Of a stretch of DNA of 44,457 bases, positions 6,386 to 21,715 are shown one piece after another. The notes below the pieces were generated by a model. That model was not told where the DNA came from, did not search any database, and saw only the letters and a program-made list of their open reading frames with translations. The DNA comes from Deltaproteobacteria bacterium (GTDB taxonomy: Bacteria; Desulfobacterota; DSM-4660; Desulfatiglandales; B25-G16). Location of the stretch: assembly GCA_020351915.1 (NCBI GenBank), contig CP070673.1:4844889-4889345 (forward strand). Direction: 5' to 3'. The position numbers and the translations under genes are program-made. The stretch's first letter is position 1; each line of letters begins with the position of its first letter.

Positions 6386-7037
6386 GGTTATCATGAAAAG
6401 GACTACTCTAAGGCAATGAGCCGATCTTCAAATGTCATTATCAGGTCTCTATTTCCCTGAGCAACAAGGGGAGAGATACATGTCTTAGGATGTTGTTTAA
6501 GAGTTTGGATAACTGATGGGATGACGGTGCTTGTTTTTTGCGCCTGTACGGTTGGATAGGGTAAGGCATGATCGAAAAAACATCCGGATTTTCAGGTAGT
6601 ACTGAGCGGGCCACATTAACTTGTTGAAATATTAAGCAAAAGATGACGCGGCCCCGAATTCTTCTTCATCTTTTCATCAATCCTTTGCAGATTATTAACC
6701 GGACAATGCTGAGGGGAAGACGCATTTTCCTATCAGGGCCAAGGAAAATGTATTGACAAAACCAAGAAATATTGATATCAAGCAAGACTAAAATATTGGG
6801 ATAACCTGCCGGCCGGTAATAACCGATTAGTTATCGCTCCTACGTTACAAACTCCCTTCGACCTTATATGAGACAGCAACCGCATGAAGGGTTTCACTTC
6901 ATCTGAGGATGTCTCTTAGAGTGCTTTTGGAGGCTGGAATGGGTGGTGCACAGAGGAGTTGGTAGGTGTGAATGAGACGCTGAGCTTTACAAACGAGTCT
7001 ATTGGTGAGTCCTAAATCGAGGAATGAGGAGGGTGAT
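6386..7037 (+). promoter_or_regulatory. Intergenic region with putative promoter and GC-rich operator-like motif before the UbiD gene
   Basis: No coding sequence is recognisable. A promoter-like pair TTGACA (6753-6758) and TATCAA (6776-6781), spaced 17 bp, points at the UbiD gene. About 20 nt past the predicted transcription start lies GCCGGCCGGTAAT (6808-6820), nearly identical to GCCGGTCGGTAAA at 19413-19425, which has the same position relative to the mutase promoter. It is a candidate operator. The leader to the start codon is about 250 nt. Confidence 0.45.
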
Positions 7038-8507
7038 ATGCCGGTTAAAGATTTCAGGGAATGGATCAGCAAACTGGAAACCGAGGGTGAGCTCAAGAGA
7101 ATAGAGGTAAAGGTAGATTGGGACCTGGAGATAGCTGAAGTTGTCAGGGCAGCGGCCTCTCGGAGAGGTCCGGCGCTTCTGTTTGAGAATATTAAGGATT
7201 ATGAAAAGGGCCGCTGCACCAGACTTTTCACAGGCGGTTTGGGAAGCAGACGCCGGATAGCCATGATGCTGGGATTACCGAAGGACACGTCTCGGGAGGA
7301 GATTCACAGAGTAGTCAAAAAAGGGATGAAGGAACCGATCAAGCCAGTAAGGGTTACCAAGGGACCGGTAAAGGAGAACGTGGTTACGGGCGATCAGGTA
7401 AATCTCTTCGAGTTCCCTGTTCCCAAGTGGCATCCCTTAGATGCGGGAAGGTATATCAATACCTTCTGTGGCGTAGTAACAAGAGATCCAGATACCGGAG
7501 TACATAACGTAGGCGTCTATAGGGGGATGATTCTCGACAGAACCAAAATAGGGGTCATGTTAATTCCTTCCCAGCATTGGGGTATTCATTATAGCAAGTA
7601 TAAGGGGCTGCAGAAGCCGATGCCGGTGGCAGTTGTATACGGGTGGGATGATGTTTTGCCATTTGTGGGGGGCATGCCGCTTTCTGCAGCAGTTTGTGAG
7701 TACGATGTCATGGGTGGCCTCAGGCAAGCACCGGTGGAACTCATAGGATGCGAGACATCGGATATCGAGGTTCCTGCTTCAGCAGAGATAGTTGTTGAGG
7801 GTTTTATCTCCCCTGATCCAGACACCTATGAATTAGAAGGCCCATTCGGAGAGGCTTCGGGATTCTATGGAGACGCAAACACAAGGCCGGTACTCAAAGT
7901 CGGCTGTATCACCCATAGGGATAACCCGATCTATAGGGGCCAGTTGGAAGGGATGAAAGCTGGCGTGGCAGGTGAAGGTGATTACATGGGTATGTATGGT
8001 CAAACAGCCATTCTTTGGGATATTATGGAATCTCAAGGTGTTCCCGGGGTGGTTGATATTGGGATGAGGTGGTCCTTTGTGGCAGTCAGTATCCATAAAA
8101 CATTTCAAGGTCAGGCGAAACAGGTGGCAGCCGCATTATGGGGAAACCAGGTGTCTTTATCATTCGTCAAAACGGTGATGGTTGTCGAAGAGAATGTGGA
8201 TGTGAATAATCTCAGTGCCCTTCACCATGCCTTTGAGAACTATGTAGACCCTAAGGAGGACATAATCGTATTCCCCGGAGGGGGAGGCAGTAACCTTGAT
8301 CCCAGCATATCATACGAACTCAGAGACGAGATAAAATACGGAAGTGCAGTGCAGAACAAGGTCCTGATAGACGCCACCATCAACTGGTTACGCCATCCGG
8401 AAAGAAAAGAGTGGGGTAATAAGCGATACTCACCTGAGTGTACCGAAGGGTCCCCTGAGGTTCAGCAATTAGTGGAGCGGAGATGGAAGGAATACGGGAT
8501 TGACTAG
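7038..8507 (+). CDS. UbiD-family (de)carboxylase
   Basis: This 489-residue protein belongs to the UbiD family of prenylated-FMN-dependent reversible decarboxylases. The catalytic triad of the family is visible: Arg162 in GVYRGM, and Glu267 and Glu272 in ELEGPFGEASG, with the same Glu-x4-Glu spacing as in characterised members. Other matches are KENVVTGDQVNLFEFPVPKW and THRDNPIYRG. Anaerobes use UbiD relatives to carboxylate phenol, benzene or naphthalene or to decarboxylate aromatic and unsaturated acids; direction and substrate are not readable here. I place the start at ATG 7038, not an in-frame GTG at 7002, because GAGGAGGGTGAT precedes it directly and the family N-terminus (DFREWISKLE) follows. 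No UbiX-like prenyltransferase gene is in the window. A small ORF and a decayed CoA ligase follow. Confidence 0.92.
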   Translation: MPVKDFREWISKLETEGELKRIEVKVDWDLEIAEVVRAAASRRGPALLFENIKDYEKGRCTRLFTGGLGSRRRIAMMLGLPKDTSREEIHRVVKKGMKEPIKPVRVTKGPVKENVVTGDQVNLFEFPVPKWHPLDAGRYINTFCGVVTRDPDTGVHNVGVYRGMILDRTKIGVMLIPSQHWGIHYSKYKGLQKPMPVAVVYGWDDVLPFVGGMPLSAAVCEYDVMGGLRQAPVELIGCETSDIEVPASAEIVVEGFISPDPDTYELEGPFGEASGFYGDANTRPVLKVGCITHRDNPIYRGQLEGMKAGVAGEGDYMGMYGQTAILWDIMESQGVPGVVDIGMRWSFVAVSIHKTFQGQAKQVAAALWGNQVSLSFVKTVMVVEENVDVNNLSALHHAFENYVDPKEDIIVFPGGGGSNLDPSISYELRDEIKYGSAVQNKVLIDATINWLRHPERKEWGNKRYSPECTEGSPEVQQLVERRWKEYGID

Positions 8508-8602
8508 CCGATGCCGACCACACGGGGAATGGAGGAAGAATAAGGATAGTCTGAGGATAAGATATCTATCAGGGGACCTAGGCAACCAAAAAGGAGAAAA
8601 AT

Positions 8603-8770
8603 ATGGCAAAGGAGATCATTAAGGGCGGCGATAAGTTATGGGATTTGAAATATGATAAGGTGGAGAAAGATCGTCCAGAATTGAGGGGCAAGGCTGCCGC
8701 CTATTCCTATGCCACTAAAATAACTCGGCCAAAGCCTTTGGTTTTATCTCCGAAGGATATCTTGAAGTGA
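8603..8770 (+). CDS. Small protein (55 aa) downstream of UbiD, unknown function
   Basis: A short ORF begins at ATG 8603 behind a strong ribosome-binding site (AAAGGAGAAAAAT) and ends at TGA 8768-8770. The product starts MAKEIIKGGDKLWDLKYDKV, is lysine-rich (about one residue in five), has no membrane segment and no cysteines, and ends PLVLSPKDILK. It lies 95 nt after the UbiD gene on the same strand. I do not recognise a family. Small accessory subunits occur in some UbiD-type carboxylase operons, so a role with the upstream enzyme is possible but unproven. Confidence 0.55.
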   Translation: MAKEIIKGGDKLWDLKYDKVEKDRPELRGKAAAYSYATKITRPKPLVLSPKDILK

Positions 8771-8860
8771 AGAGAAAGGAGAAGACCGAGAAGAAGGTAG
8801 AAAGAAGGATGGTGAGGATATAGCGCTTCCCGCAAATACGGTCTCAGCAGTTTACGCTAG

Positions 8861-9608
8861 GTGTTCATGAGGGGGCTGGTCTGCATCGGGGACAAGCTAA
8901 AGGAAATACCTAACTTTTTCAGAGCGTCCCATTATTCAACACAGAGTCTCGGGATCAGTGAGATCGCAGGTACGGCCATAGTTAACCTCGTCCCTGAGGA
9001 CGCCGTTGCTGGACTCAACCCGGATGTTACAGAAAAAGACTGAAAAAGGCTAGCATCTGTTGGTAAGCCCATTACAGGTTGTGAAGCTCGGGTAGTCAAT
9101 GCGAACGACCAGGATGTTCCTGCTGGAGAGGTCGGGGAAACAGTGCTAAAGCATGAATCGCTTATGAGGGGCTACTGGAACAGCCCAGAGCTTACCCGAA
9201 AAGCTCTTAGGGGCGGCTGTACCATACTGAGGACTTAGGAGCGCTTGACGAAGATGGCTACTTTTACTCTAAGGGAAGAAAGGACTTTATGATACAAAGC
9301 GGTGGCCTCTTTGTACCCCAGCGGAAGTAGAAAGTGCCATCCTTGAGCATCGGGCGGTGGATGAGGCTGCAGTTATTGGCCTCCTGCATGAAAGGTGGAA
9401 GGAGGCAGTCACGGCGAGTGTAGTCCTGAACGAAGGTCATGTTGCCACGGCAGAGGAGATTAGGAAACACTGTAGAGAATACTTGTCAGGCTTCCAGGTG
9501 CCAAAGGCCGTGTATTTTATCGATACATTGCCCAAACATCCAGATCATGGCAAGGTCTTGGTCAAAGATCTACAGGGGGTTTTTGGTGGAAAGAAGCAAG
9601 AGGAGTAA
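8861..9608 (+). pseudogene. Acyl-CoA synthetase (ANL superfamily), C-terminal remnant with several frameshifts
   Basis: Pieces in different frames spell the C-terminal third of an AMP-forming CoA ligase. LGISEIAGT stands where YGMTE is expected. Next come VPEDAVAGLNPDVTEK, then SVGKPITG after a stop, and GETVLKHESLMRGYW. A damaged EDLGALDEDGYFYSKGRKDF loop is followed by DEAAVIGLLHERWKEAVTAS and a final HPDHGKVLVKDLQ, where the last lysine of the catalytic GK motif is present. The N-terminal ATP-binding domain is gone. This arrangement (UbiD followed by a ligase) matches the intact pair at 37886-40890 and the ligases share several segments, so this is probably the dead copy of a duplicated or separately acquired module. 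Confidence 0.8.
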
Positions 9609-9644
9609 ATTGGCAACCAATGCTGCCAAAAAACACGAGAAAAA

Positions 9645-9902
9645 GGTGTCGAGGTTAAGGAAGTTGTCTGCTGGGCCCCGCCGGGGTGTCATGATCGTTG
9701 CAGACTGCTGGTGAGTGCTAAGGCTGGGCGGATTGTAAAGATCAGACGTGACCGAAAAAATCCCGCGAACTTACGCCGAAGCTGTCCAGATAGACTTCCG
9801 CACCTTGTGAAGTGGCTCTATCACCCTGACCAGCTCATGTACCCGTCGGGGTGTCAGCAAATTGTCAAGGATTATTTCCTCATAGAAGGGCTTTGTTCTT
9901 AG
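9645..9902 (+). pseudogene. N-terminal remnant of a molybdopterin (bis-MGD) oxidoreductase
   Basis: A frame running from before 9645 to TAG at 9900-9902 contains VVCWAPPGCHDRC, then AKAGRIVKI, then SCPDRLPHLVKWLYHPDQL and MYP. This is the layout of the N-terminal [4Fe-4S]-binding segment of bis-MGD enzymes: a Cys cluster, a G-R-I-V-K-I turn, a fourth Cys in the CP motif, then the WLYHPDRL-type block. The Gly-Asp pair normally after VKI is replaced by Arg residues and the reading frame stops before the molybdenum domain, so it is a decayed fragment. It was probably cut off by the event that brought in the FAD oxidase gene 50 nt downstream. Confidence 0.72.
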
Positions 9903-9951
9903 GCTATGATAGGCTGTGGTATTTGGGAGGTGAAATAAAAGGAGGTAAAAG

Positions 9952-11409
9952 ATGAAGCAAGCCATAGGGAGAATCGTAGGTGAAGGCAATGTAACTGACA
10001 AGGATGAAGAACTGGAGACGTTCTCGAAAGATTATAGTGTTGTATCTCCAAAGAAGCCCAAAATGGTTGTAAAAGTTCAGGACCCCGATGAGGTGCTTAA
10101 TGTGGTACTTAAACTTAATGAGGAAGGAGCACCTCTTTATCCCAGTAGTTCAAAAGTCCATTTCTACGGGGGGACCATCCCCAGGAAAGAGGATGCGGTA
10201 GTAATGGATCTTTCTGGTATGAACAGGATCCACGAAATTGACGAGATCAATCACTGGGTTCATATTGAGCCGGGTGTAACGTGGGGTCAACTTCAGCAGG
10301 AACTTGAGAAAAAGGGGTATCGAAGTATTATCCCCCTGCTTCCGCATCCTGATAGAAGTGTACTTATGGACTTGCTTGAAAGGGAACAGCCTACCCTTTG
10401 CAAGTTTGAGTACAGTGAGATGCTCGCCTCCATGTGGGTTGTTTGGGGCATTGGAGAAAAATTCACCACCGGCTCTGCCAGCATTAATACTTTCCGGCAA
10501 GAAGGCTGTCTTGCTGATGGTGTGAACCCCCAAGGACCTGGCTCTATTGACTTCTGGAGGCTTCTTCAGGGTAGCCAAGGGACTTTTGGCATTGTGACCA
10601 AAGGGATCTGTAAGATAGAACTGATACCATCGGTTTCAAAAACCTTTTTCTTCTCTGCGGAGAACCTCGGGGAGCTAATTGCGCCGCTTTACGAAATGGG
10701 CCATAGATATGTAGGGTTTGAACGGTTTTTAGTGAATCATGTGTCTCTAGCTGCGATTTTGGGAGATCCTAGCTTGAAAGCCTCTTTGCCTCACTGGGTC
10801 ATAATCAATGTGGTTAGTGGACTTCCGATTGGGAGACCAGATGAGATGGTAGACTATCAGGCTGACTACATTCAAAATCAGCTTGAGAAGAAGTTCCCCT
10901 GCGTTACCTTGGAAGAGAGGCTTGAAGGAGCACCTTCCGGAACTGAAGAAAAGCTGCCTGAAATGTTGAGAAAGCCTTGGCCTCAGGATAAGGTGTATTG
11001 GAAACACAGCATGAAAGGAAATTGCCAGGAGGTCATATTCATGACATCGCTCAATAGGGCGCCCGAGTTTGTTGAGGCCTTTGAGAATATGGGAATTGAA
11101 GTGGGTTATCCCTTTGAGGATATAGGGATATATGTTCAACCCGTTGAAGACATGAGGGCATGTCAAATGACCTTTATGTTGCCATATGATTTAAAGGACG
11201 AACAAGAGCTAAAGAGGATAAGAGAATTATATAACAGAGCTATAGTTGAAGTCGTTAATAAAGGAGGATTTTTCAATCGTATCTATGATGGCATAGGAGA
11301 CATAGTTTACAACCTTCCTAGGGCTCAGGGCTATGTGAGACATATTCAAAGAGTGAAAAGACTCTTTGATCCTAACTGGATTCTTAGCCCGGGAAAGCTC
11401 TGTTTTTGA
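9952..11409 (+). CDS. FAD-linked oxidase (VAO/PCMH fold), first of a redox triad
   Basis: This 485-residue protein has an N-terminal PCMH-type FAD-binding domain, with PDEVLNVVLKLNEEGAPLYP leading to SSSKVHFYGGTIPR, the flavin-binding loop, and GVTWGQLQQELEKKGY. A middle segment has GSQGTFGIVTKG, and the C-terminus ends LFDPNWILSPGKLCF, the usual end of FAD-linked oxidase C-terminal domains. The family includes glycolate oxidase GlcD, D-lactate dehydrogenases, 4-cresol and vanillyl-alcohol oxidases. The start at 9952 has a near-perfect AAAAGGAGGTAAAAG ribosome-binding site. It precedes a Fe-S/CCG protein and a second FAD oxidase, so the three probably form one complex that oxidises a hydroxyacid or alcohol and passes electrons through the Fe-S subunit. 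The substrate is unknown. Confidence 0.88.
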   Translation: MKQAIGRIVGEGNVTDKDEELETFSKDYSVVSPKKPKMVVKVQDPDEVLNVVLKLNEEGAPLYPSSSKVHFYGGTIPRKEDAVVMDLSGMNRIHEIDEINHWVHIEPGVTWGQLQQELEKKGYRSIIPLLPHPDRSVLMDLLEREQPTLCKFEYSEMLASMWVVWGIGEKFTTGSASINTFRQEGCLADGVNPQGPGSIDFWRLLQGSQGTFGIVTKGICKIELIPSVSKTFFFSAENLGELIAPLYEMGHRYVGFERFLVNHVSLAAILGDPSLKASLPHWVIINVVSGLPIGRPDEMVDYQADYIQNQLEKKFPCVTLEERLEGAPSGTEEKLPEMLRKPWPQDKVYWKHSMKGNCQEVIFMTSLNRAPEFVEAFENMGIEVGYPFEDIGIYVQPVEDMRACQMTFMLPYDLKDEQELKRIRELYNRAIVEVVNKGGFFNRIYDGIGDIVYNLPRAQGYVRHIQRVKRLFDPNWILSPGKLCF

Positions 11410-11525
11410 ATTGTCTTTTCAGCTGTTGGCAAATCAAAATTATCTTATTGATAGCGCTTAACACAGATAACAGATAATAAAGGGCCATGAGGAAGTTATG
11501 ACATGAACTATTGCGGAGGACATAA

Positions 11526-12932
11526 ATGAAAGCAATGAAACATGAACTGAAGCCTGTGAATTTCAAACTAGATTTAGACCTCAGGAACTATCTCTGGGAG
11601 ACCAGGACATGCATGGGATGTGTGATGTGCAAATATGGAGACTGGACATATGTCCCCTCTGCTGAAGAGTATGACTTTTCTTGGGTTTGTCCCGAGTGGG
11701 AATGGGGCGTCATGGAACATTATGGGACAGCGGGCCAAATTAAGATTGTAGGCGGTCTTCTCCTAGGAGACCTGTCAGTCGATCATCCCACCGTAAGGGA
11801 AGTTGCCTACAGGTGCCACCTCTGTGGTGGTTGTGACGTATCTTGCAAGAGAAACCTGGACCTGGAGATCCTTATGATGCATGAGGCATTGATGGTGCAC
11901 CTGGTGAATGCCGGAGCCGGCCCTATGCCCCAGCATAAGGTTCTGGCGGAAAGGATAGAACGCACCGGGAATTATTTCGGAAATGAAGCGAAAGATAGGA
12001 TGGCCTGGGCAAAAGAGGGTGTAAGGGTTGCCAAAAAGGCCGATCTTCTTTATTTTGTGGGCTGTTATGCAGCATACAAATACCCCGCTATCGCGACAAG
12101 TGTTGCCCAGATCCTCAATACCGCGAAGGTCCCCTTTATGATCATGGAGGGGCAGATATGCTGCGGGTATAAGCTGTTCACCACGGGCCTTGTTGCGGAC
12201 GTGACAGCGGTTGCTAGCAATACGATTAGGAAAATAAATGACCTTGGCGTGAAGCGAGTTGTTACTGAGTGTGCGGATTGTTATAGAATGCTTAAGGTAG
12301 AATATCCAAAAGTATTAAATATGGCTACACAGGACCTTGGTTTTGAAGTCCTTCACATTGCAGAGTATGCTGATATGCTTATTAAGGAAGGAGCCATAAA
12401 ACCAAAGAAGGAGTTTCCCGAGAAGGTTACCTATCATGACCCTTGCGGCTTAGGAAGGCTTTCTGAGCCATGGATTCCCTGGGAAGGCATAAGAGACCCC
12501 GACGACTGGGGCAAGCTAAAGCCAAGAAGGGAATTTAGAAGGGGGACAAACGGCTGCTACGAACCCCCAAGGAATATTCTAAGGAGCATCCCTGGCATTG
12601 AGCTTGTTGAGATGCGACGGCACCACTCCAACGCCTTCTGCTCGGGTTCATGTGGTGGCGTAAGGGAGGCATTTCCAGAGCAACAAGCTTTTGAGACCGA
12701 TGTGAGGGTAAGGGAGGCCAATCATGTAGGAGCCGAGACCATAGTTACACCAAACCCGAGGACACTTGAGGTCTTTGAAGAGTCGTTAGCGAGAATGAAT
12801 GCCGATGGCATATCGAAAAATATTGGAGAAGTGAGAGAGCGCTTTGTCGGAGCGGAAAAGTCTCTTGGCGTTAGATCATTGAACGTAAAACGTGCCCGAG
12901 ATTTGGCTAGCCTTTTAGCCGCTGCAATTTGA
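11526..12932 (+). CDS. Fe-S oxidoreductase with two CCG (cysteine-rich) domains, GlcF/HdrD-like
   Basis: This 468-residue protein starts with two ferredoxin-like cluster sites: CMGCVMC with a fourth Cys well downstream in WVCPEW, and CHLCGGCDVSC about 50 residues later. Two cysteine-rich CCG-type modules follow, with GQICCGYKLF and ECADCYRM in the first, and YHDPCGLGR and CSGSCGGVREAF in the second. This is the layout of GlcF, LutA and heterodisulfide-reductase HdrD-type electron-transfer subunits, which take electrons from a flavoprotein partner to a quinone or disulfide. The wide spacing to the fourth Cys in the first cluster is unusual. GCGGAGGACATAA precedes the ATG. It is sandwiched between two FAD oxidases, and only 16 nt separate it from the next gene, which supports one operon. 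Confidence 0.88.
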   Translation: MKAMKHELKPVNFKLDLDLRNYLWETRTCMGCVMCKYGDWTYVPSAEEYDFSWVCPEWEWGVMEHYGTAGQIKIVGGLLLGDLSVDHPTVREVAYRCHLCGGCDVSCKRNLDLEILMMHEALMVHLVNAGAGPMPQHKVLAERIERTGNYFGNEAKDRMAWAKEGVRVAKKADLLYFVGCYAAYKYPAIATSVAQILNTAKVPFMIMEGQICCGYKLFTTGLVADVTAVASNTIRKINDLGVKRVVTECADCYRMLKVEYPKVLNMATQDLGFEVLHIAEYADMLIKEGAIKPKKEFPEKVTYHDPCGLGRLSEPWIPWEGIRDPDDWGKLKPRREFRRGTNGCYEPPRNILRSIPGIELVEMRRHHSNAFCSGSCGGVREAFPEQQAFETDVRVREANHVGAETIVTPNPRTLEVFEESLARMNADGISKNIGEVRERFVGAEKSLGVRSLNVKRARDLASLLAAAI

Positions 12933-12948
12933 TCAGGAGGTTTAGGAT

Positions 12949-14718
12949 ATGACAACCCATTACATTACAGAGTTAGAGGCAAGAGAAAAACAAAGTCAGA
13001 TGAGGACCGAGCCTTATTGGTCGGAAGGGCCCGATGAGGCATTCAAGGAGATGGAGGAAGTGGTTGGGTCTCGATGGATAACGAGGGACAAGGTGGCCCG
13101 CCAGGCCTATTGTGGCAGAGGATCCGGACATGAAATATACTGGTACCTGAACGTGAGTTATCCTCCTTGCATAATTGTGCTTCCTGCATCGACTGGGGAA
13201 GTAGCTGATATAGTCAGGATTTGTAACAAATATAATCTCCCCTTTGTCCCGACGAGTTCAGGATGGATGATTCAGGGTTTTCCAAGATATCGTTCGGATA
13301 TGGTAACCATTGACCTTCAGAGGATGTGGGAGTGGAAAATAGACAAAAAGAATATGGTTATTACTGTGGGGCCTGGTGTTCGTTACGGACACCACTGCCA
13401 GGCCTGCATTGAGCATGATTTGTGGTTTATAAATACCGGGGGTGGCTCAGCGTCCAGCGTTATTGCCAATACCCTGAGTTTTGGGGTATCGCCGCTCAAT
13501 TACAGGATGGGCAACTCTGAGAGGAGGGCCTTGAGTTTGGAATGGGTAACGCCTGAAGGTGAAATCGTCTATTCTGGTTCGTGGGCACAATGTGAAGAGG
13601 GGTTTTGGGGGGATGGCCCTGGGCCTAACTTGATGGGCATGTTAAGGGGATTCTGTGGATGGTTTGGAGGCATGGGTATTGTCACCAGGATGAATGTGAA
13701 GGCCTTTTCCTTTTTGGAGAATGCCACCGAAATCCTTGTTCCTGAAGGTGTTAGTCCGGACACTCACCTTTCTTTTAAGGACACTGGCCGGATAAGGTGG
13801 ATCAACTTCCAATTCCCTGATAGAAAATCGCTGGAAGACTGCACGATTGAGGTCAGTCATGCCCAACTCGGAGCGGCCTGGACAAAGGTACCGGTTTTCT
13901 GGAGGGATCTTGCCAAGTCTAAGGATAAAGAGGACTTCTGGGAGAGGTGGAGCGGGGTTCAAAAGGAAGATATTGACAACTTCCATTTGCTCCGTGCCCT
14001 TTTTGTAGGGTATACATCTGAGAAGCAAATGGACTACGAGCTTAAGGCATGCGAAGATATTATGAAGAAGTATGGAGGGACGGAGAGAAGAACAAAGCCC
14101 TCTGATGAGTCCTGGATAAAGAACGCAGATGCCAATGGGATGTGGATGCTGACAAGCGGTTATATGTCCACTGATGGAGGCCAAGAAAGCCTTAGAACGG
14201 TCTTTGAGACCGGGAAACGTCTTGGGGATATCCTATACAACCACTATGATCGCTATTTTTTACCTCAGAAAGGTGATGTAGGTTGGTGGCAATCGAATGA
14301 CTTCGGCCACTCGGCATATCTTGAATTTATGCAATATAAGAATGTCGATCATTGGGATCCGCTCTCTCCCTTTTTTCGGCCAGAAACTCGCGAGCAAGGG
14401 ACCAAGTGGTACATGCAAGTTGTTACTGATGTTGATAACGAAACAGGTTTCTGCAACTTTTTCAGTGGATTCCAAAGCTGTTTGCTATACATAGGACCCC
14501 ATAGGTCCGACTTCCAGATCTGGATTGACAGATTTCAAAATGAATTTTCCCCCAAGGGGTTATCTAATCCTCCGACGCCTTACGAGGGTGAGACATTGAT
14601 AGAGCATTTTCCTGCTCATTGGCTGCCAAAGGTTCGGTCTCACATTCGAAGGGCTAAAAGGGGTAGGTCCGTGTGCGCAGGCTCATTACCTGAAAGAAAA
14701 CCATTGAGAGACACATAA
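12949..14718 (+). CDS. FAD-linked oxidase (PCMH fold), second of the redox triad
   Basis: This 589-residue protein has a long N-terminal extension (about 60 residues), then a PCMH FAD-binding domain: YPPCIIVLPASTGEVADIV, then VPTSSGWMIQGFPRYRSDMV and VGPGVRYGHHCQA. NTGGGSASSVIANTLSFG follows, then a GWFGGMGIVTRM segment. It is related to, but clearly diverged from, the oxidase at 9952. After FQNEFSPKGLSNPPTPY, the usual end region of the family, about 45 further residues rich in Arg and Lys follow; that tail may be an extension or the result of a late frameshift. The start follows TCAGGAGGTTTAGGAT. Two different FAD subunits plus one Fe-S subunit recall GlcD-GlcE-GlcF; both FAD subunits here look full-length, unlike the short GlcE. 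Confidence 0.86.
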   Translation: MTTHYITELEAREKQSQMRTEPYWSEGPDEAFKEMEEVVGSRWITRDKVARQAYCGRGSGHEIYWYLNVSYPPCIIVLPASTGEVADIVRICNKYNLPFVPTSSGWMIQGFPRYRSDMVTIDLQRMWEWKIDKKNMVITVGPGVRYGHHCQACIEHDLWFINTGGGSASSVIANTLSFGVSPLNYRMGNSERRALSLEWVTPEGEIVYSGSWAQCEEGFWGDGPGPNLMGMLRGFCGWFGGMGIVTRMNVKAFSFLENATEILVPEGVSPDTHLSFKDTGRIRWINFQFPDRKSLEDCTIEVSHAQLGAAWTKVPVFWRDLAKSKDKEDFWERWSGVQKEDIDNFHLLRALFVGYTSEKQMDYELKACEDIMKKYGGTERRTKPSDESWIKNADANGMWMLTSGYMSTDGGQESLRTVFETGKRLGDILYNHYDRYFLPQKGDVGWWQSNDFGHSAYLEFMQYKNVDHWDPLSPFFRPETREQGTKWYMQVVTDVDNETGFCNFFSGFQSCLLYIGPHRSDFQIWIDRFQNEFSPKGLSNPPTPYEGETLIEHFPAHWLPKVRSHIRRAKRGRSVCAGSLPERKPLRDT

Positions 14719-15250: not shown

Positions 15251-16108
15251 ATGCGATTTGACTATTTACAGCCCAAGACCGTTGAAGAGGCTATTTCTTT
15301 ACTGAGTAAGTTTGACGGGAAGGCTAAGGTAATTGCCGGGGGTACCGATTTACTCGTGCAGATAAGGAACAAGGCTATAAAGTCTGAACGTGTAGTTGAT
15401 ATTGGGTCTATACCTGGGCTTGATTATATTAATTACGATGAGAAGCGGGGTCTATCAATCGGCGCTCTCACCACGATTAGAACCCTTGAGACATCGAGTG
15501 AGATTCAGCGGCGGTACCCAGTAATTTGCCGGGCAGCCAGCCAACTTGGCTCAGTGGCGATACGAAATATGGCCACTATCGGTGGCAATCTTTGCAATGC
15601 TGCGCCCTCAGCCGAGAACGCACCAGCCTTGATTGGGCTCTCAGCAACGTGTAAGATTGTCGGTCCTGGTGGGCAGAGGGTAGTACCCTTGGAAGAGTTC
15701 TTTATCGGTCCAGGGAGCACCGTCCTCAAAAAGGGGGAATTGCTCATAGAGATTCAGGTGCCGGTCCCATTACCTCATACCAGGGGTGCATATTTGAAGC
15801 ACGGGATAAGGGGAACAATTGAGCTGGCGATTGTGGGAGTAGCCACGATACTCACTTTAGCGCCTAGAGCTCGGGTTTGCAGGGATATTAGGGTAGTACT
15901 GGGTGCGGTAGCCCCGATACCAATGAGGGCGCGAAAAGCTGAGAAGGTACTCAGGGGGAAAAAGATTGATGAGGCTCTCATGAACGAGGCAGCTGAGGCT
16001 GCCTCGCGGGAAGCACGCCCTATAACTGATGTTCGCGCTACTGCCGAATACAGGAGGGAGATGGTAGGAGTATTTACTCGGCGGGCTATAAGGGAAGCGC
16101 TAGCTTAA
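15251..16108 (+). CDS. Xanthine-oxidase-family molybdenum hydroxylase, FAD subunit (CoxM-like)
   Basis: This 285-residue protein matches medium, FAD-binding subunits of molybdenum hydroxylases. It opens MRFDYLQPKTVEEAISLLSK, has the FAD-pyrophosphate motif VIAGGTDLLVQIRN (residues about 32-45) and the second flavin-binding block MATIGGNLCNAAPSAENAPA (about 108-127). The C-terminal CO-dehydrogenase-flavoprotein domain follows. It passes electrons from the Fe-S subunit to the final acceptor. It is the ordinary CoxM length and lacks the roughly 40-residue [4Fe-4S] insert known in 4-hydroxybenzoyl-CoA reductase HcrB. GGAGGAAAAGGA precedes the ATG. The three subunit genes follow in the order FAD, Fe-S, Mo with short gaps and one overlap, so they form one operon and one heterotrimer. 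Confidence 0.92.
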   Translation: MRFDYLQPKTVEEAISLLSKFDGKAKVIAGGTDLLVQIRNKAIKSERVVDIGSIPGLDYINYDEKRGLSIGALTTIRTLETSSEIQRRYPVICRAASQLGSVAIRNMATIGGNLCNAAPSAENAPALIGLSATCKIVGPGGQRVVPLEEFFIGPGSTVLKKGELLIEIQVPVPLPHTRGAYLKHGIRGTIELAIVGVATILTLAPRARVCRDIRVVLGAVAPIPMRARKAEKVLRGKKIDEALMNEAAEAASREARPITDVRATAEYRREMVGVFTRRAIREALA

Positions 16109-16173
16109 TAAGCCCACCTGTTAGACGAATGAAAATCAAGGGACGGAAAAACAGCCCAGATGAGGAGGGCGAT

Positions 16174-16656
16174 ATGAAACAGCTAATCAAGTTAACGGTC
16201 AACGGGGCAGAAGAGGAGGTGTTGGTTGAGCCTTGGTGGGATTTGGCCTATGTGCTGCGTGAGCGGCTTGGCTTAACCGGAACAAAGGTAGGCTGCAATA
16301 CAGGCGAGTGTGGTGCATGTACCGTCCTTGTTGATGGTAAGCCAGTAAACAGCTGCTTGTTTCTGGCGGTGAAAGCCAGTGGAAAGGCTGTCCTCACTAT
16401 AGAGGGGTTGCAAAGCGCAAACCGAGAGTTACATCCGTTACAAGAGGCTTTCATAGAGCACTTTGCTGTTCAATGTGGTTATTGCACCCCGGGGATGATA
16501 ATGGCAGCCAAGGCCTTGCTTGACGAAAATCGGTCTCCGACGGAGGAAGAGATAAAGGAATGGCTCAAGGGTAACCTGTGCCGATGTACTGGATATACAA
16601 AGATCGTCGAGGCTGTTTTGGCCGCGAGTACTCAAATGAGAGGAGTTGGAAAATGA
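16174..16656 (+). CDS. Xanthine-oxidase-family molybdenum hydroxylase, [2Fe-2S] subunit (CoxS-like)
   Basis: This 160-residue protein carries the two [2Fe-2S] clusters of the complex. The plant-ferredoxin-type site has Cys41, Cys46, Cys49 and Cys61 (CNTGECGACTVLVDGKPVNS, then C). The helical second site has Cys101, Cys104, Cys136 and Cys138 (QCGYCTPGMI and LCRCTGY). All eight ligands are present. I start the gene at ATG 16174 because GAGGAGGGCGAT stands directly before it and the product MKQLIKLTVNG matches the family N-terminus; an earlier in-frame ATG at 16129 would add an unrelated 15-residue extension. The stop overlaps the start of the large subunit (ATGA). Confidence 0.95.
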   Translation: MKQLIKLTVNGAEEEVLVEPWWDLAYVLRERLGLTGTKVGCNTGECGACTVLVDGKPVNSCLFLAVKASGKAVLTIEGLQSANRELHPLQEAFIEHFAVQCGYCTPGMIMAAKALLDENRSPTEEEIKEWLKGNLCRCTGYTKIVEAVLAASTQMRGVGK

Positions 16657-18998
16657 CAGCACTTTCTACGGTGGGGAAGAGTGTACCCAGAATAGATGCT
16701 TTAGAAAAGGTAACTGGGAAGGCAAAATATACGATCGATGAGGGGGTCGGGTTGCCTGGTATGCTGTATGGAAAGGTCTTATATAGTCCGTACCCCCATG
16801 CTGAGATTCTTGATATTGATACCTCCAGAGCAGAACAACTCCCAGGTGTAAAGGCTGTTATGACGGGCACGGATGTCCCTAATGTAAGGATGGGAAGAGT
16901 CGTACTCGATCAACATGTTCTTGCCCGCGGTAGAGTTCGCTTTGTCGGAGATGCGGTGGCTGCGGTCGCGGCGAGCACTATTGAAGCCGCTGAAGAGGCT
17001 TTGGACTTCATTCGAGTTGAATACAAAGAGTTACCCGCAGTATTTGATGCAGAGGAAGCCATGAGGCAAGATTGTCCTATCGTGCTTCATCCAGAGCTCG
17101 CCAGTTATAAAAGTGTGTCATTTTCTGAGCTTCGTCAGGACCTCCCTGGACCCAATGTCCACACCCATCACAAGATACGCAAGGGGAATGTGGATGATGG
17201 ATTTCAAAAAGCTGACCTGATTGTGGAGAATAGGTTCTCAACGTGCAGAATATCTCATTGCCAGCTTGAACTGCCCAATTCCACCGCTTACCTAGGAGGT
17301 GATGGAACACTGACGGTATGGTCATCAGTGCACCTCCTTTTTCCTACCGCTGCCCAGATTAGCAATGTGTTTGGTCTGCCGCCCAGCAAGGTTAGGGTAA
17401 GGGCCAACTATTTCGGCGGTTGTTTTGGTGGCAGCCCCCGCGCCTATATGTTCGCCGCCATGCTAGCGCTTAAAACAGGGAGGCCCGTAAAAGTAGTCTT
17501 TAGCAGAGAAGAGTCTTTTTTCCGTGACCTGCACAGACTACCCAAAGTTATTTATATAAAGGATGGCGTTACAAGGGACGGGACATTGTTAGCCAGGGAG
17601 ATGAGACTGATCTGTAACGGGGGGGCATATGCTGACGCAACACCTCAAATAATACGAAATGGTTCTTTCGGAATATCGCAGTATAGAATACCTAATGTGA
17701 AGTGGGATGCCTATGGGGTTTACACAAACGAGCCAATTTGTGGCGGGTTCCGCGGCTACGGGAATTCACAGCCTTTCTGGGCAATCGAGCAGCAGCTGGA
17801 AATCCTTGCCGAGAAGCTGGGGATGGACGCAGTGGATTTGAGGAAGAAGAATATAGTAAAGGAAGGGGAGAAGAATCTCCGCGGAGAGATTACCCACAGC
17901 ATAGGAGCAGAGGAATGTTTAGATAAGGCTGCGGAATGGATAGGGTGGGGTAAATCCTCTGAAGCACCTGGCGGTAATTTGAAGATAGGCAAAGGCATTG
18001 CTTTAGGCAACAAGTATACCATGGTAGATACTGTATCTGCCTCTATGGTCAAGGTACATAAAGATGGGACCATTGAGTTCCGCCATGGCGGAGAAGAGTC
18101 CGGGCAAGGCTGTAATACGGTATTGTCGCAGATTGTGGCTGAGGAATTCAATGTGCCCATGCACAAAGTTAAGGTGGTTTGGGGTGATACGTCCATAGTC
18201 CCTTACGATTTTGGCTCTGTATCCAGTAGGACCACATTTTTCACCGGAAACGCCGTACGCCTCGCGTGCCAGGATGCCAAGCGGCAGATTTTCGAAACAG
18301 CGGCCCCCAGGCTGGGAGCAGCCCCTGAAGACCTGGCAACTGGAGACGGCACCGTTTACGTAAGGGAATCCCCTGAAAAGGCAATGACGATCAGCGCTCT
18401 TTTCATGCCAGAGGCCAAGGGAGCCCAGAAGGGAGCGTTGCTTGTGCCTGAGGAAGGGGAGATTCTGGGAAGGGGCATGTTCTATATCGAAGGAGTTACC
18501 GATGAAGACTTCGAGACAGGGCAAGGAACAAAGCTGACAGCATCCTATGGGTATGCAGCACAAGCGGTTGAGGTAGCAGTTGATTCTGAGACGGGAATCG
18601 TTAAGGTACTACGATGGGTCAATGCCTTTGACATGGGAACGCCAATCAACCCGAAGCTGTGTGAAGGCCAGATGGAAGGAGGGGCAGGAATGGGTATCGG
18701 CAGCGCCTTGTATGAAGAGCTCGTAATGGATAACGGCAAGATCCTTAACCCTGGATTTCGTGATTACAGATTCCCGAGCACCAAAGAGATCCCGAGTGGA
18801 AATAACATGAAATCTATGACCGTGGAGGCTCCCCATAGAGAGGGGCCTTTTGGGGCTAAAGGAGCCGGGGAGGCAGCTATGACACCCTCAGCACCAGCGA
18901 TAGCGAATGCTATATACAATGCCGCTGGGGTAAGAATAACGGACTTGCCAATCACACCTGAGAAAGTCTTAAAGGCCCTTCGAGCCAGTAAAAAGTAA
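16653..18998 (+). CDS. Xanthine-oxidase-family molybdenum hydroxylase, catalytic Mo subunit
   Basis: This 781-residue protein is the molybdopterin-cytosine-dinucleotide subunit. It starts with KSVPRIDALEKVTGKAKYT, and the domain order is N-terminal aldehyde-oxidase/xanthine-dehydrogenase a/b hammerhead, then the molybdenum-binding domain. Visible motifs are GGCFGGSPRAYMFAAMLA, GGFRGYGNSQPFWAIEQQLE, GGEESGQGCNTVLSQIVAEE and, near the end, GAKGAGEAAMTPSAPA, whose Glu is the catalytic base that activates water. The reaction would be hydroxylation of a C-H bond with water, or the reverse dehydroxylation. Candidates in this context are an aromatic or heterocyclic acid or its CoA ester, but the substrate is not readable. 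The start is ATG 16653, inside the ATGA overlap with the Fe-S subunit, after AGAGGAGTTGG. No maturation chaperone gene (XdhC-like) is in the window. Confidence 0.94.
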   Translation: MTALSTVGKSVPRIDALEKVTGKAKYTIDEGVGLPGMLYGKVLYSPYPHAEILDIDTSRAEQLPGVKAVMTGTDVPNVRMGRVVLDQHVLARGRVRFVGDAVAAVAASTIEAAEEALDFIRVEYKELPAVFDAEEAMRQDCPIVLHPELASYKSVSFSELRQDLPGPNVHTHHKIRKGNVDDGFQKADLIVENRFSTCRISHCQLELPNSTAYLGGDGTLTVWSSVHLLFPTAAQISNVFGLPPSKVRVRANYFGGCFGGSPRAYMFAAMLALKTGRPVKVVFSREESFFRDLHRLPKVIYIKDGVTRDGTLLAREMRLICNGGAYADATPQIIRNGSFGISQYRIPNVKWDAYGVYTNEPICGGFRGYGNSQPFWAIEQQLEILAEKLGMDAVDLRKKNIVKEGEKNLRGEITHSIGAEECLDKAAEWIGWGKSSEAPGGNLKIGKGIALGNKYTMVDTVSASMVKVHKDGTIEFRHGGEESGQGCNTVLSQIVAEEFNVPMHKVKVVWGDTSIVPYDFGSVSSRTTFFTGNAVRLACQDAKRQIFETAAPRLGAAPEDLATGDGTVYVRESPEKAMTISALFMPEAKGAQKGALLVPEEGEILGRGMFYIEGVTDEDFETGQGTKLTASYGYAAQAVEVAVDSETGIVKVLRWVNAFDMGTPINPKLCEGQMEGGAGMGIGSALYEELVMDNGKILNPGFRDYRFPSTKEIPSGNNMKSMTVEAPHREGPFGAKGAGEAAMTPSAPAIANAIYNAAGVRITDLPITPEKVLKALRASKK

Positions 18999-19468: not shown

Positions 19469-19554
19469 TTCTACTTGAAAGCTTTAGAAAGAATCGAGGT
19501 TGTAAATATGAAGCATAATTGCAAATACAGAACATATTTCAGCGCGGAAGGATA

Positions 19555-19950
19555 ATGGGTAGAAAAATTAGGATTCTTATTGGAAAGCCCGGTCTGGACG
19601 GCCATGATCGTGGAGCTAAGGTGGTGGCTCACGCCTTAAAGGATAGAGGCATGGAGGTAATTTACACCGGCCTCCATCAAAGCGTCCCGAGTATTGTCAA
19701 CCAGGCAATTCAAGAAGGTGTGGATGTAATCGGACTTTCCATTATGTCGGGCGCTCACATTCCCATCTGTAAAAAGCTGATGGATCTGATCAAAAAGGAG
19801 AATCTTGATAACGTCCTGGTTGTTGTGGGCGGCGTCATTCCTGCGAAGGACTATCCGGTTCTCAGGGAGATGGGTATCGATGGTATCTTCCCAGGGGGAA
19901 CCCACTTTGAGGAGGTGGTCCGCTTCATTGAGGAGAACGTAAGGAGGTAG
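19555..19950 (+). CDS. B12-binding subunit of methylmalonyl-CoA-mutase-type enzyme
   Basis: This 131-residue protein is a stand-alone cobalamin-binding domain of the split mutase type. The base-off B12 motif is present: LDGHDRG (Asp-x-His-x-x-Gly) at residues about 15-21, whose His ligates cobalt. SIMSGAH follows in the middle and VVVGGVIP near residue 90 (the GG motif). IDGIFPGGTHFEEVV near the end closes the Rossmann-like fold. The start is ATG 19555 after GCGGAAGGATA; an upstream ATG at 19519 lacks this and adds an unrelated stretch. The large subunit starts 136 nt downstream. Together they would carry out a 1,2-rearrangement of an acyl-CoA, as in archaeal and many anaerobic methylmalonyl-CoA mutases. 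Confidence 0.94.
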   Translation: MGRKIRILIGKPGLDGHDRGAKVVAHALKDRGMEVIYTGLHQSVPSIVNQAIQEGVDVIGLSIMSGAHIPICKKLMDLIKKENLDNVLVVVGGVIPAKDYPVLREMGIDGIFPGGTHFEEVVRFIEENVRR

Positions 19951-20086
19951 ACCCCATGCACATGGGTTTATCTGATTGGTGTGATAAGGCAGGCGGAATG
20001 TTGAAACCAGGTTTCAAACATTGCCTGAAGGGAAGGATTTGAAAGCCAAAGAGGAACAGTGCCGTTGAGCATTAGGAGGATAGATC

Positions 20087-21715
20087 GTGGGCGTTGCCAC
20101 TTATATCAAGGATGAAAATGACGCGATCCAGGAGGTCATGCTCCAATCGGGAATAAAGGTTAAGCCGGTTTATAAGCCGGACGATTTGGAGAGGGTCGGT
20201 TTTGATTACCACAAAGATCTTGGCGATCCCGGCGAGTTTCCATTCACGCGGAGTATTCATCCATTGGGATATCGAAGCCGGAGCTTTACGACCCGGGAAT
20301 ACACCGGATTCGGTACGCCTGAGGAGACCAACAAGCGTTTCAAGTTAATGATTTCACACGGCCAAACAGGCCTAAACGTCGCTTTCGATCTCCCCACCCA
20401 GATGGGCTATGATTCCGATGATCCCATGGCTGAAGGGGAAGTGGGGCGGGTAGGGATAGCTGTGGATTCTTTGGAAGACTTCGAAATAGCCTTCAAAGAT
20501 ATCCCCTTGAACAAAATGGGTTCCAGTCTCACCATTAACGCTGTCGCCACCATCATTCTGGCCATGTATCAATCAGCGGCGGAGAAGTTCGGTTATAGGA
20601 AAGAAGAAATTTTAGCAACACCCCAGAACGATATCCTCAAGGAGATGGTAGGCAGGGGCGCTTGGATCTATCCTGTAGAGCCTGCAGTACGACTGGTGGG
20701 AGATACCATTGAGTATGCTATGAAGGAGTTACCAAAGTGTAGCCCTGTTTCGATCGGTGGGTATCATATCAGGGAATCGGGATGTACACCGGCTCAGGAG
20801 ATTTCCTATGCCCTCATGATCGCCTTCGCTTATATTGATAATGTCGTGGCGCGGGGCTATGAGGCGGAAGAGTTCGTCAGAGGATTGACCTTCAATCTAA
20901 ATGTCTATGGCAACCTTTGGGAAAATGTGGCTAAGTTCCGGGCAGCAAGGAAGCTGTGGGCGAAACTGCTTCGGGAAAGGTACGGTGTGCAGGACAAGAA
21001 AAGCCTTTTCCTTCGGGGAAATTTTGGTGGGGGAGGATCCGGCTTGACCAAGCAGCAACCGGAGAACAACATTATACGAGGCGCATACTACGGGCTTACG
21101 GCTGCCTTGTCAGGGGCCCAGACCGTAGCCCTTTGCTCCTTTGATGAGGCCTATACGATCCCCACCGAGAGAGCGGCCCTCCTCTCTCTCAGGACCTTGC
21201 AGATACTCATGGATGAAATCGGGTTGAGGGACACGGTTGACCCATTGGCAGGTTCGTACTTCATAGAAACTTTGACTAAGGAGATGGAGGAAAAGATATT
21301 GGAGGAAATGGAAAAGGTAGAAAACCTTGGGGGAATGGTAGAAGCTGTTTCCTCAGGATATGTCCAGAGGGAGGTGGCCAGGCAGGCCTATGAATTTGAG
21401 AAAAAGCTCCAGGAAGGAAAAGTCATCAAGGTGGGGGTAAACAAATACACTGAAGGCGTTGACATGGATGTGGAACTCCATGAATACAATGAAAAGTGGG
21501 GCCATATGCAAATTGAGCGAGTGAAAAAGTTGAGGAAAAACAGGAACAACAAGGCTGTCAGAGAGTCTCTAGACTCCCTTGAAAAAGCAGCCAGGGAGGA
21601 GAAAAATGTCATGCCCTACCTGGTGGAGTGCTGTAAACATTACGCGACCGTAGGCGAAATGGCTAACGTATTCCGAGAGGTATTTGGGGAGCATGTGGAA
21701 CCGAGTATATTCTAA
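20087..21715 (+). CDS. Methylmalonyl-CoA-mutase family large subunit (split type)
   Basis: This 542-residue protein is the TIM-barrel, substrate-binding part of a B12-dependent acyl-CoA mutase, without a fused B12 domain. Key residues keep the spacing of the Propionibacterium enzyme: Tyr72 (in REYTGF), Arg190 (in VGRGAW) and His227 (in GGYHIRESG) stand 118 and 37 residues apart, like Tyr89, Arg207 and His244. Tyr plus Arg at those sites favours a carboxylated substrate such as methylmalonyl-CoA over isobutyryl- or 2-hydroxyisobutyryl-CoA. The stretch usually reading LRxHxQTxG is here LRGNFGGGGSG (about residues 309-319), which is odd. The start is GTG 20087 after AGGAGGATAGATC. A class III CoA-transferase follows at 49 nt, so the operon may activate an acid and rearrange its CoA ester. 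Confidence 0.93.
   Translation: MGVATYIKDENDAIQEVMLQSGIKVKPVYKPDDLERVGFDYHKDLGDPGEFPFTRSIHPLGYRSRSFTTREYTGFGTPEETNKRFKLMISHGQTGLNVAFDLPTQMGYDSDDPMAEGEVGRVGIAVDSLEDFEIAFKDIPLNKMGSSLTINAVATIILAMYQSAAEKFGYRKEEILATPQNDILKEMVGRGAWIYPVEPAVRLVGDTIEYAMKELPKCSPVSIGGYHIRESGCTPAQEISYALMIAFAYIDNVVARGYEAEEFVRGLTFNLNVYGNLWENVAKFRAARKLWAKLLRERYGVQDKKSLFLRGNFGGGGSGLTKQQPENNIIRGAYYGLTAALSGAQTVALCSFDEAYTIPTERAALLSLRTLQILMDEIGLRDTVDPLAGSYFIETLTKEMEEKILEEMEKVENLGGMVEAVSSGYVQREVARQAYEFEKKLQEGKVIKVGVNKYTEGVDMDVELHEYNEKWGHMQIERVKKLRKNRNNKAVRESLDSLEKAAREEKNVMPYLVECCKHYATVGEMANVFREVFGEHVEPSIF

What the first reader, a model, noticed from the sequence alone, without database searches (positions are those of the whole stretch)
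9952..14718. FAD oxidase - Fe-S/CCG - FAD oxidase triad of unknown substrate
GlcDEF-like systems have one full FAD subunit and one short one; here both FAD subunits look full-length and diverged, and the first cluster of the Fe-S subunit has odd spacing. Placed among aromatic-acid genes, this may be a new oxidoreductase complex.
Basis: partly seen in the sequence, partly recalled or inferred. Interest (0 to 1): 0.6.

Follow-up and report, generated by a model that had tools for sequence, protein, structure and literature searches.

The report
Relative of benzene-linked flavoprotein complex
Three neighbouring genes encode a two-flavin, iron-sulphur enzyme complex of the family recently proposed to start oxygen-free breakdown of benzene; this copy is a distant relative of the benzene-linked ones, sits among other genes, and its own substrate is unknown.

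Summary
In detail: window 9952-14718 carries three intact co-directional genes, a 485-aa FAD protein (A), a 468-aa Fe-S/CCG protein (B) and a 589-aa FAD protein (C). It is not GlcDEF: neither flavoprotein has the HxGDGxxH motif, and structure matches are at most 22% identical. It is not an unknown kind either. Two 2026 papers describe the same trio as 'Magic' proteins #24-26 (ORM2a) and BzS1_12970/80/90, the dominant proteins of anaerobic benzene degraders, with distant homologues in NaphS2. In a scan of named genomes, 75 of 79 loci keep the A-B-C order; the other four stop at contig ends. Window and G075 alone, among 84 Fe-S subunits, lost cysteines of the second CCG site, echoing a remark about ORM2a. 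The window copy has other neighbours (xanthine-oxidase-family molybdoenzyme, UbiD, ligase remnant), and its genome gave no BamA and no DUF1329, so benzene mineralisation is unlikely. Best reading: a horizontally acquired, diverged branch next to the benzene-linked complexes, acting on a cyclic substrate not yet known.

The parts
9952..11409 (+). Subunit A: VAO/PCMH-fold flavoprotein, 485 aa (counterpart of ORM2a protein #24 / BzS1_12970 by gene order and domains)
   Evidence: PF01565; AlphaFold2 pLDDT 90.9; VAO 9ffk Z 36.0, 457 aligned, 2.6 A; PCMH 1dii Z 34.8, 458 aligned, 2.5 A; 50% identical to G075
11526..12932 (+). Subunit B: Hdr/GlcF-like Fe-S protein, 468 aa. Cysteine sets C29-C32-C35...C55 and C97-C100-C103-C107, complete first CCG site (C180, C212-C213, C249, C252), degenerate second CCG site (C307 and C372 kept; S373, N410, T413)
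   Evidence: 56% identical to G075
12949..14718 (+). Subunit C: second flavoprotein, 589 aa (67.9 kDa), with 25 inserted residues shared with G075 and absent from at least 95% of the other 73 sequences
   Evidence: PF01565; model pLDDT 80.0; mLDHD Z 29.5, eugenol oxidase Z 27.9; 55% identical to G075; insertions
8508..9951 (+). Decayed remnants directly upstream: pieces of an AMP-forming CoA ligase (about 8822-9575) and a piece that by eye resembles the start of a bis-MGD molybdenum oxidoreductase (9609-9899)
   Evidence: tblastn, 40-45% to the ligase at 39325; the molybdenum piece read by eye only
7002..8507 (+). UbiD-family decarboxylase upstream
   Evidence: PF01977, TIGR00148 above cut-off
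15251..16108 (+). Xanthine-oxidase-family enzyme, FAD subunit
   Evidence: PF00941, PF03450; 285 aa, shorter than the 321-position 4-HBCR beta profile, whose best stretch covers residues 3-116 only
16129..16656 (+). Xanthine-oxidase-family enzyme, 2Fe-2S subunit
   Evidence: PF01799, PF00111
16653..18998 (+). Xanthine-oxidase-family enzyme, Mo subunit; best model 4-hydroxybenzoyl-CoA reductase alpha, 558.8 bits, below the 994.55 cut-off
   Evidence: such subunits recur beside the triad in other genomes

Best explanation
The three genes encode a heterotrimeric FAD / Fe-S / FAD oxidoreductase (A-B-C) of the family that includes the benzene-linked complexes ORM2a #24-26 and BzS1_12970/80/90, and this copy lies on a diverged branch next to those rather than among the NaphS2-type homologues. 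Likely working: the substrate binds over the flavin of A (VAO/PCMH fold) beside a conserved arginine, gives up a hydride or electrons, and these pass through the two 4Fe-4S sites and the one intact CCG site of B to an outside acceptor (electron-transferring flavoprotein or quinone), with C as a second flavin site. Shown here: anatomy, conservation of the trio, folds, relationship to G075, shared loss in the second CCG site, and the absence of the glycolate/D-lactate motif and of the phenol-binding tyrosine pair. Inferred: assembly into one complex, the electron path, and that the substrate is an aromatic or other cyclic compound. The genome gave no BamA and no DUF1329, so here it probably serves another compound than benzene.
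For: A-B-C on one strand in 75 of 79 named loci, the other 4 ending at contig edges. Published: same trio and order, most abundant proteins in benzene-grown ORM2a and about 1/5 of the proteome in BzS1; the ORM2a B subunit has two cysteine motifs missing conserved cysteines. Window and G075 are sisters in all three trees (support 0.996-1.0) and the only two of 84 B subunits lacking C373 and C413; C372, C373, C410 and C413 are present in 82 of 82 others. G075 carries triad, 3HBDH, ECH, TetR_C_24, DUF1302, DUF1329, Usp, YCF48-like and MMPL on one contig, matching BzS1_13040/50/70 and the ORM2a 'Nanopod' order. The G019 fragment, 81% identical to G075 in C, is followed by 3HBDH-ECH-TetR-YCF48-MMPL. 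No more erosion than G075 at conserved columns: window keeps 50/58, 67/80, 57/68; G075 51/58, 66/80, 57/68.
Against: I could not obtain ORM2a, BzS1, AUK045 or Pelotomaculum BPL sequences, so placement next to the benzene core rests on G075, whose own membership is inferred from synteny and subunit sizes. Window-G075 distances are long (1.0-1.2 substitutions per site), so long-branch attraction is possible, though shared insertions argue against it. In the B tree a deeper node has support 0.095. Window neighbours are not the 'Magic' neighbours. No expression or biochemical data exist for this copy.
Confidence: 0.62

Rival explanations
1. It is a true benzene-activating enzyme, doing in this organism what is proposed for BzS1 and ORM2a.
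For: Nearest relatives found carry the published benzene-type gene context; shared cysteine losses; the trio sits in a stretch with transposase-like pieces and pseudogenes, as reported for ORM2a.
Against: The same genome gives no BamA (best 67 bits against a cut-off of 464; the search found it in 7 of 12 genomes, among them NaphS2 and two of the window's genus) and no DUF1329. Only 50-56% identical to G075, while published core members are 63-89% identical to BzS1. Neighbours differ. Completeness is 90.64%, so absence is not proof.
Confidence: 0.13
2. It is a p-cresol-methylhydroxylase-like enzyme for 4-alkylphenols or hydroxybenzyl alcohols that uses Fe-S instead of cytochrome as electron acceptor.
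For: A has the PCMH/VAO fold and keeps the arginine aligned with PCMH Arg474 (R443, in 77 of 80) and, in the window, a tyrosine aligned with Tyr95 (Y72). A xanthine-oxidase-family enzyme and a ligase nearby could process an aldehyde.
Against: The position of PCMH Tyr473 is N442 here and Thr/Ser/Asn in 80 of 80; the Tyr95 position varies freely (Y in 30 of 80). The functional roles of these PCMH residues are recalled from the literature, not tested.
Confidence: 0.12
3. It is a glycolate or D-2-hydroxyacid dehydrogenase (GlcDEF or LDHD type).
For: Same overall composition FAD/Fe-S/FAD; mLDHD is among the best structural matches of both flavoproteins.
Against: HxGDGxxH motif in 0 of 80 A and 0 of 75 C sequences; NCBIfam glcD 53.8 and 47.4 bits against a cut-off of 567.9; C is 589 aa, not a short GlcE; Toth et al. 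report at most 23% identity of the ORM2a subunits to GlcDEF.
Confidence: 0.05
4. It is a decaying, non-functional copy in a pseudogene-rich island.
For: Ligase and probable molybdoenzyme remnants directly upstream; lost cysteines in B; 0 of 17 other genomes of the same genus or family carry A at E <= 1e-40.
Against: Three intact ORFs with ribosome-binding-like sites; cysteine losses of the same site in G075; conserved columns kept as well as in G075.
Confidence: 0.08

Closest known systems
ORM2a 'Magic' proteins #24-26 (WAC08368-WAC08370), Ca. Anaerobenzenivorax, Toth et al. 2026, PMC13101534
   Same: FAD / Hdr-like Fe-S / FAD genes in the same order; B subunit with missing conserved cysteines; genomic island with transposases and pseudogenes; AMP ligase gene upstream (a remnant in the window)
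   Different: Window lacks the adjacent MaoC, the CaiB pair and BamQ; its genome gave no BamA and no DUF1329. Sequence identity to ORM2a not measured.
BzS1_12970/80/90, Musat et al. 2026, PMC13416013
   Same: Same trio; sizes 54.5/46.5/65.8 kDa against 55.2/52.7/67.9 in the window and 54.3/48.4/66.0 in G075
   Different: BzS1 has beta-oxidation genes, 3HBDH, ECH and TetR downstream, as G075 and G019 partly do; the window has a xanthine-oxidase-family enzyme instead
NaphS2-type syntenic homologues (here L086/L045, strain NaphS2)
   Same: Same trio and order, 38-43% identity to the window; xanthine-oxidase-family enzyme and ligase nearby, as in the window
   Different: Complete second CCG site; C 533 aa without the shared insertions
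E. coli GlcDEF glycolate dehydrogenase
   Same: Two FAD proteins and one CCG Fe-S protein
   Different: No HxGDGxxH motif, both flavoproteins full length, distal fourth cysteine in the first Fe-S site
p-Cresol methylhydroxylase / vanillyl alcohol oxidase
   Same: Fold of A (1dii Z 34.8, 9ffk Z 36.0) and one substrate-pocket arginine
   Different: Tyr473 equivalent lost in the whole family; Fe-S partner instead of cytochrome c or oxygen; a second flavoprotein

Membership tests
Heterotrimeric flavoprotein family of BzS1_12970/80/90 and its syntenic homologues (broad sense) | Consecutive genes FAD / CCG Fe-S / FAD on one strand | tested here: met
   order kept in 75 of 79 related loci
Heterotrimeric flavoprotein family of BzS1_12970/80/90 and its syntenic homologues (broad sense) | Full-length homology in all three subunits to a published member (NaphS2) | tested here: met
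   43.0 / 41.0 / 38.1% identity to L045 = G055 contig C533; taken to be NaphS2 because its contig length 162883 equals that of ADZZ01000278.1
Benzene-linked core ('Magic' cluster proper) | High sequence identity (63-89% to BzS1 within the published core) | not testable with these tools
   None of these sequences could be fetched; closest found is G075 at 50-56%
Benzene-linked core ('Magic' cluster proper) | Fe-S subunit with missing conserved cysteines | tested here: inconclusive
   Window and G075 both lack C373 and C413, and one further cysteine each; Toth et al. do not say in the section read which motifs are affected
Benzene-linked core ('Magic' cluster proper) | Neighbouring MaoC / CaiB pair / BamQ or 3HBDH / ECH / TetR genes | tested here: not met
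   Not seen beside the window triad; a single CaiB lies 7 kb downstream and a different TetR (24% to that of G075) 4.6 kb upstream; 3HBDH / ECH / TetR met in G075 and G019
Benzene-linked core ('Magic' cluster proper) | Genome with benzoyl-CoA pathway marker BamA | tested here: not met
   No match above cut-off in a 90.64% complete genome; positive in 7 of 12 genomes of the same search
GlcDEF glycolate dehydrogenase | GlcD equivalog score and metal motif HxGDGxxH (motif recalled) | tested here: not met
   53.8 and 47.4 bits against 567.9; motif in 0 of 80 and 0 of 75
PCMH / VAO 4-alkylphenol oxidoreductases | VAO/PCMH fold | tested here: met
PCMH / VAO 4-alkylphenol oxidoreductases | Phenolate-binding Tyr-Tyr-Arg (role recalled) | tested here: not met
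   Y72, N442, R443 in the window; second Tyr lost in 80 of 80
4-hydroxybenzoyl-CoA reductase (neighbour at 15251-18998) | Alpha-subunit equivalog cut-off | tested here: not met
   558.8 bits against 994.55; all 9 triad-linked alpha subunits tested (window included) fall below

The most novel reading that the evidence does not exclude
A second lineage of the oxygen-free ring-activating flavoenzyme: the window complex performs the same unprecedented chemistry as that proposed for the benzene-linked trio (flavin-driven activation and coupling of an unactivated ring) on a different cyclic hydrocarbon or acid, with the loss of the second CCG site marking the switch from plain dehydrogenase to this chemistry.
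Probability: 0.14. Interest if true: 0.85.

Novelty: new variant of a known kind. Interest (0 to 1): 0.6.

Why it matters
How bacteria attack benzene without oxygen is unsolved, and in 2026 two groups put this type of trio forward as the enzyme. A diverged relative in another gene setting gives a natural comparison: features shared by the window and G075 but not by the many NaphS2-type relatives (lost second CCG site, long C subunit with insertions, W217K in A) are candidates for what makes benzene-type chemistry, once checked in the benzene complexes themselves. The family is also wider than the two papers' focus: 377 relatives in one genome scan, the best 79 loci lying in Desulfobacterota, Dehalococcoidia, Firmicutes, Spirochaetes and Acidobacteria, often beside a xanthine-oxidase-family enzyme, which makes its ordinary function testable.

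Tried and rejected
GlcDEF/D-lactate dehydrogenase was rejected on motif and scores. Phenol oxidation of the canonical VAO/PCMH kind was lowered because the second phenolate tyrosine is lost throughout the family. Decay of the window copy was lowered because conserved columns are kept as well as in G075. The idea that the neighbouring molybdoenzyme is a true 4-hydroxybenzoyl-CoA reductase failed its cut-off. G075 is probably not AUK045 itself: its triad is not followed by the CaiB/MaoC genes for which AUK045 has homologues.

Attempts that led nowhere: the named scan used motifs around CCG[AS]G and CA[ED][CG]Y, which miss members without the second CCG site, so close relatives of the window could not be found with it. 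Two phylum searches each drew 395 genomes and gave nothing closer than G075; G075 itself came from the order search. NaphS2 expression data (PMC2988823, passages only) do not mention the trio in the passages found. PMC11887813 (passages) gave no data on it. Paper searches behind 'only two papers on the trio found in this library'.

Rows dropped before counts: trees and cysteine counts use only sequences within set length and score limits, from the 79 named loci plus seven loci of the order, the window and G075. Conserved-column counts used columns identical in at least 95% of the others. The neighbour control compares loci from many genomes with 40 windows of only two genomes, so it is rough. 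Only the best 80 of 377 relatives were kept, so the 75 of 79 is not a count over all relatives.
Full report
OBSERVATION. The window (G000:C1:4844889-4889345 of a one-contig, 5.09-Mb, 90.64% complete genome) holds three intact + strand genes: A 9952-11409 (485 aa), B 11526-12932 (468 aa), C 12949-14718 (589 aa). Pfam sees FAD_binding_4 in A and C and two CCG stretches in B. No NCBIfam model passes its cut-off for any of the three. Each gene has a ribosome-binding-like stretch. The odd first Fe-S site is C-x2-C-x2-C-x19-C-P; across the family the gap is mostly 16 (72 of 84; 8 did not fit the pattern).

CONSERVED TRIO. In 61 genomes (own genome and 60 relatives) the C query found full-length homologues of 38-41% identity only outside the window's genus and family, with B and A beside them. 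A scan of named genomes with the B alignment gave 377 relatives, of which the best 80 (79 loci) were kept: Desulfobacterota such as Desulfonema magnum, NaphS2 and Syntrophorhabdus, plus Dehalococcoidia, Desulfosporosinus, Pelotomaculum, Spirochaetes and Acidobacteria. In 75 of these 79 the order A-B-C on one strand is complete; 2 lack room for A and 2 for C at contig ends.

WHAT IT IS. A literature search led to Musat et al. 2026 (PMC13416013; abstract, section 3.5 and passages read) and Toth et al. 2026 (PMC13101534; abstract, passages and sections 5, 6 and 10-15 as numbered in the outline read). Both describe this trio. In ORM2a the three proteins (#24-26) rank 3rd, 2nd and 1st in the proteome; in BzS1 they make up about one fifth of it. 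Both propose a part in benzene activation, with the chemistry unproven. Musat et al. note distant syntenic homologues (23-42%) in NaphS2 and Ds. variabilis and think these serve other functions.

WHERE THE WINDOW COPY STANDS. To NaphS2 (L045 = G055) it is 43.0, 41.0 and 38.1% identical in A, B and C. In a search of the 85 genomes held for its order, 27 (own genome included) carry A at E <= 1e-40, and none of the 4 other genomes of its genus or the 13 others of its family does, which suggests horizontal acquisition; several of these genomes are incomplete. The closest is G075, with 50, 56 and 55% identity in A, B and C. In trees of 80 A, 84 B and 75 C sequences, window and G075 are sisters with support 0.996, 1.0 and 1.0. 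They share 25 inserted residues in C, 3 in B and 1 in A that at least 95% of the others lack, and the change W217K in A. A fragment of C in G019 is 81% identical to G075 and 48% to the window.

LINK TO THE BENZENE-TYPE CLUSTERS. On one G075 contig the triad is followed by 3-hydroxyacyl-CoA dehydrogenase, enoyl-CoA hydratase, TetR_C_24, DUF1302, DUF1329, Usp, a YCF48-like protein and an MMPL transporter. The first three match BzS1_13040/50/70 in kind and order; the rest repeats the ORM2a 'Nanopod' set of porin-like protein, DUF1329, Usp, YCF48 and MMPL, which Toth et al. report on a second island in ORM2a. G019 shows 3HBDH, ECH, TetR, YCF48 and MMPL behind its C fragment. Subunit C of G075 (66.0 kDa) resembles that of BzS1 (65.8) more than that of NaphS2 does (59.9). 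So G075 and G019 very probably belong with the benzene-linked group, and the window is their outlying sister. This is inference: no core sequence could be fetched.

IRON-SULPHUR SUBUNIT. The cysteines of both 4Fe-4S sites and of the first CCG site are present. Of the second CCG site, C372, C373, C410 and C413 are present in 82 of 82 other sequences; the window has C, S, N, T and G075 has H, A, C, S. Toth et al. state that ORM2a #25 has two motifs missing conserved cysteines. The window keeps conserved columns as well as G075 does (A 50 against 51 of 58, B 67 against 66 of 80, C 57 against 57 of 68), so this looks like divergence of a branch, not decay of one copy.

FLAVOPROTEINS. A models at mean pLDDT 90.9 and matches VAO 9ffk (Z 36.0, 457 aligned, 2.6 A), mLDHD (Z 35.3, 437 aligned, 3.2 A) and PCMH 1dii (Z 34.8, 458 aligned, 2.5 A), which are near-tied. 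C models at 80.0 and matches mLDHD (Z 29.5, 430 aligned, 3.1 A) and eugenol oxidase (Z 27.9, 471 aligned, 3.2 A). The HxGDGxxH motif of 2-hydroxyacid dehydrogenases is in 0 of 80 A and 0 of 75 C sequences. In the profile alignment to PCMH, Arg474 corresponds to R443 (R in 77 of 80), Tyr473 to N442 (T, S or N in 80 of 80), Tyr95 to Y72 (Y in 30 of 80). A pocket arginine is kept, the phenol-binding tyrosine pair is not. The numbering and roles of these PCMH residues and the metal motif are recalled.

GENE SETTING. [quoted passage not shown] Xanthine-oxidase-family alpha subunits recur beside the triad: in 14 of 35 named loci of at least 17 kb against 2 of 40 control windows of 20 kb; AMP ligase 14 of 35 against 4 of 40; acyl-CoA dehydrogenase 12 of 35 against 5 of 40 (the controls come from two genomes only). 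Over all 79 named loci, many of them short, the alpha subunit is in 23. Their best model is 4-HBCR alpha, yet 9 of 9 tested, window included, fall below its cut-off. A gut relative of 4-HBCR is known to remove a phenolic hydroxyl (PMC12771579, passages), so a reductive role of this partner is possible; that is inference.

AGAINST BENZENE IN THIS ORGANISM. BamA (TIGR03200) is not found in the genome (best 67 bits, cut-off 464), while the same search is positive in 7 of 12 genomes, including NaphS2 and two genomes of the window's genus. It was also negative in G075 (71% complete), G027, G024 and G026, so it says little about the family as a whole. DUF1329 is absent from the window's genome and present in G075, G019 and G027, 3 of 12.

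CONCLUSION. A real, conserved three-gene flavin/Fe-S oxidoreductase; a diverged branch of a kind first described in 2026; most likely a dehydrogenase or activating enzyme for a cyclic substrate; not glycolate dehydrogenase; benzene itself unlikely in this host.

Noticed in passing
window 8508-9951: Pseudogene stretch directly upstream of the triad: AMP-ligase pieces about 8822-9217 and 9318-9575, and a piece at 9609-9899 that by eye resembles a molybdenum oxidoreductase N-terminus.
   Followed up: partly
window 3464-4249, 27332-28135, 31873-32612: Transposase-like fragments (by eye) and several 1-2.4-kb stretches without intact genes; the region looks like an eroding island.
   Followed up: no
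window 19519-21715: Separate B12-binding and acyl-CoA-mutase large subunits beside a CaiB transferase; mutase substrate unknown.
   Followed up: no
window 37886-40890: A second UbiD-like gene overlapping an AMP-forming ligase gene, which suggests a decarboxylation/activation pair.
   Followed up: no
L198 and L215 (G075 contig C15): Triad and 'Nanopod'-type set on one contig; Toth et al. report the two sets as separate islands in ORM2a.
   Followed up: partly
L123, L124: The trio also occurs in MAGs whose names suggest animal gut (Candidatus Alangreenwoodia gallinarii; Clostridiales RUG14226), where benzene is an unlikely substrate.
   Followed up: no
L041 / L103: Two complete triads in tandem in the TRIP AH-1 genome.
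   Followed up: no
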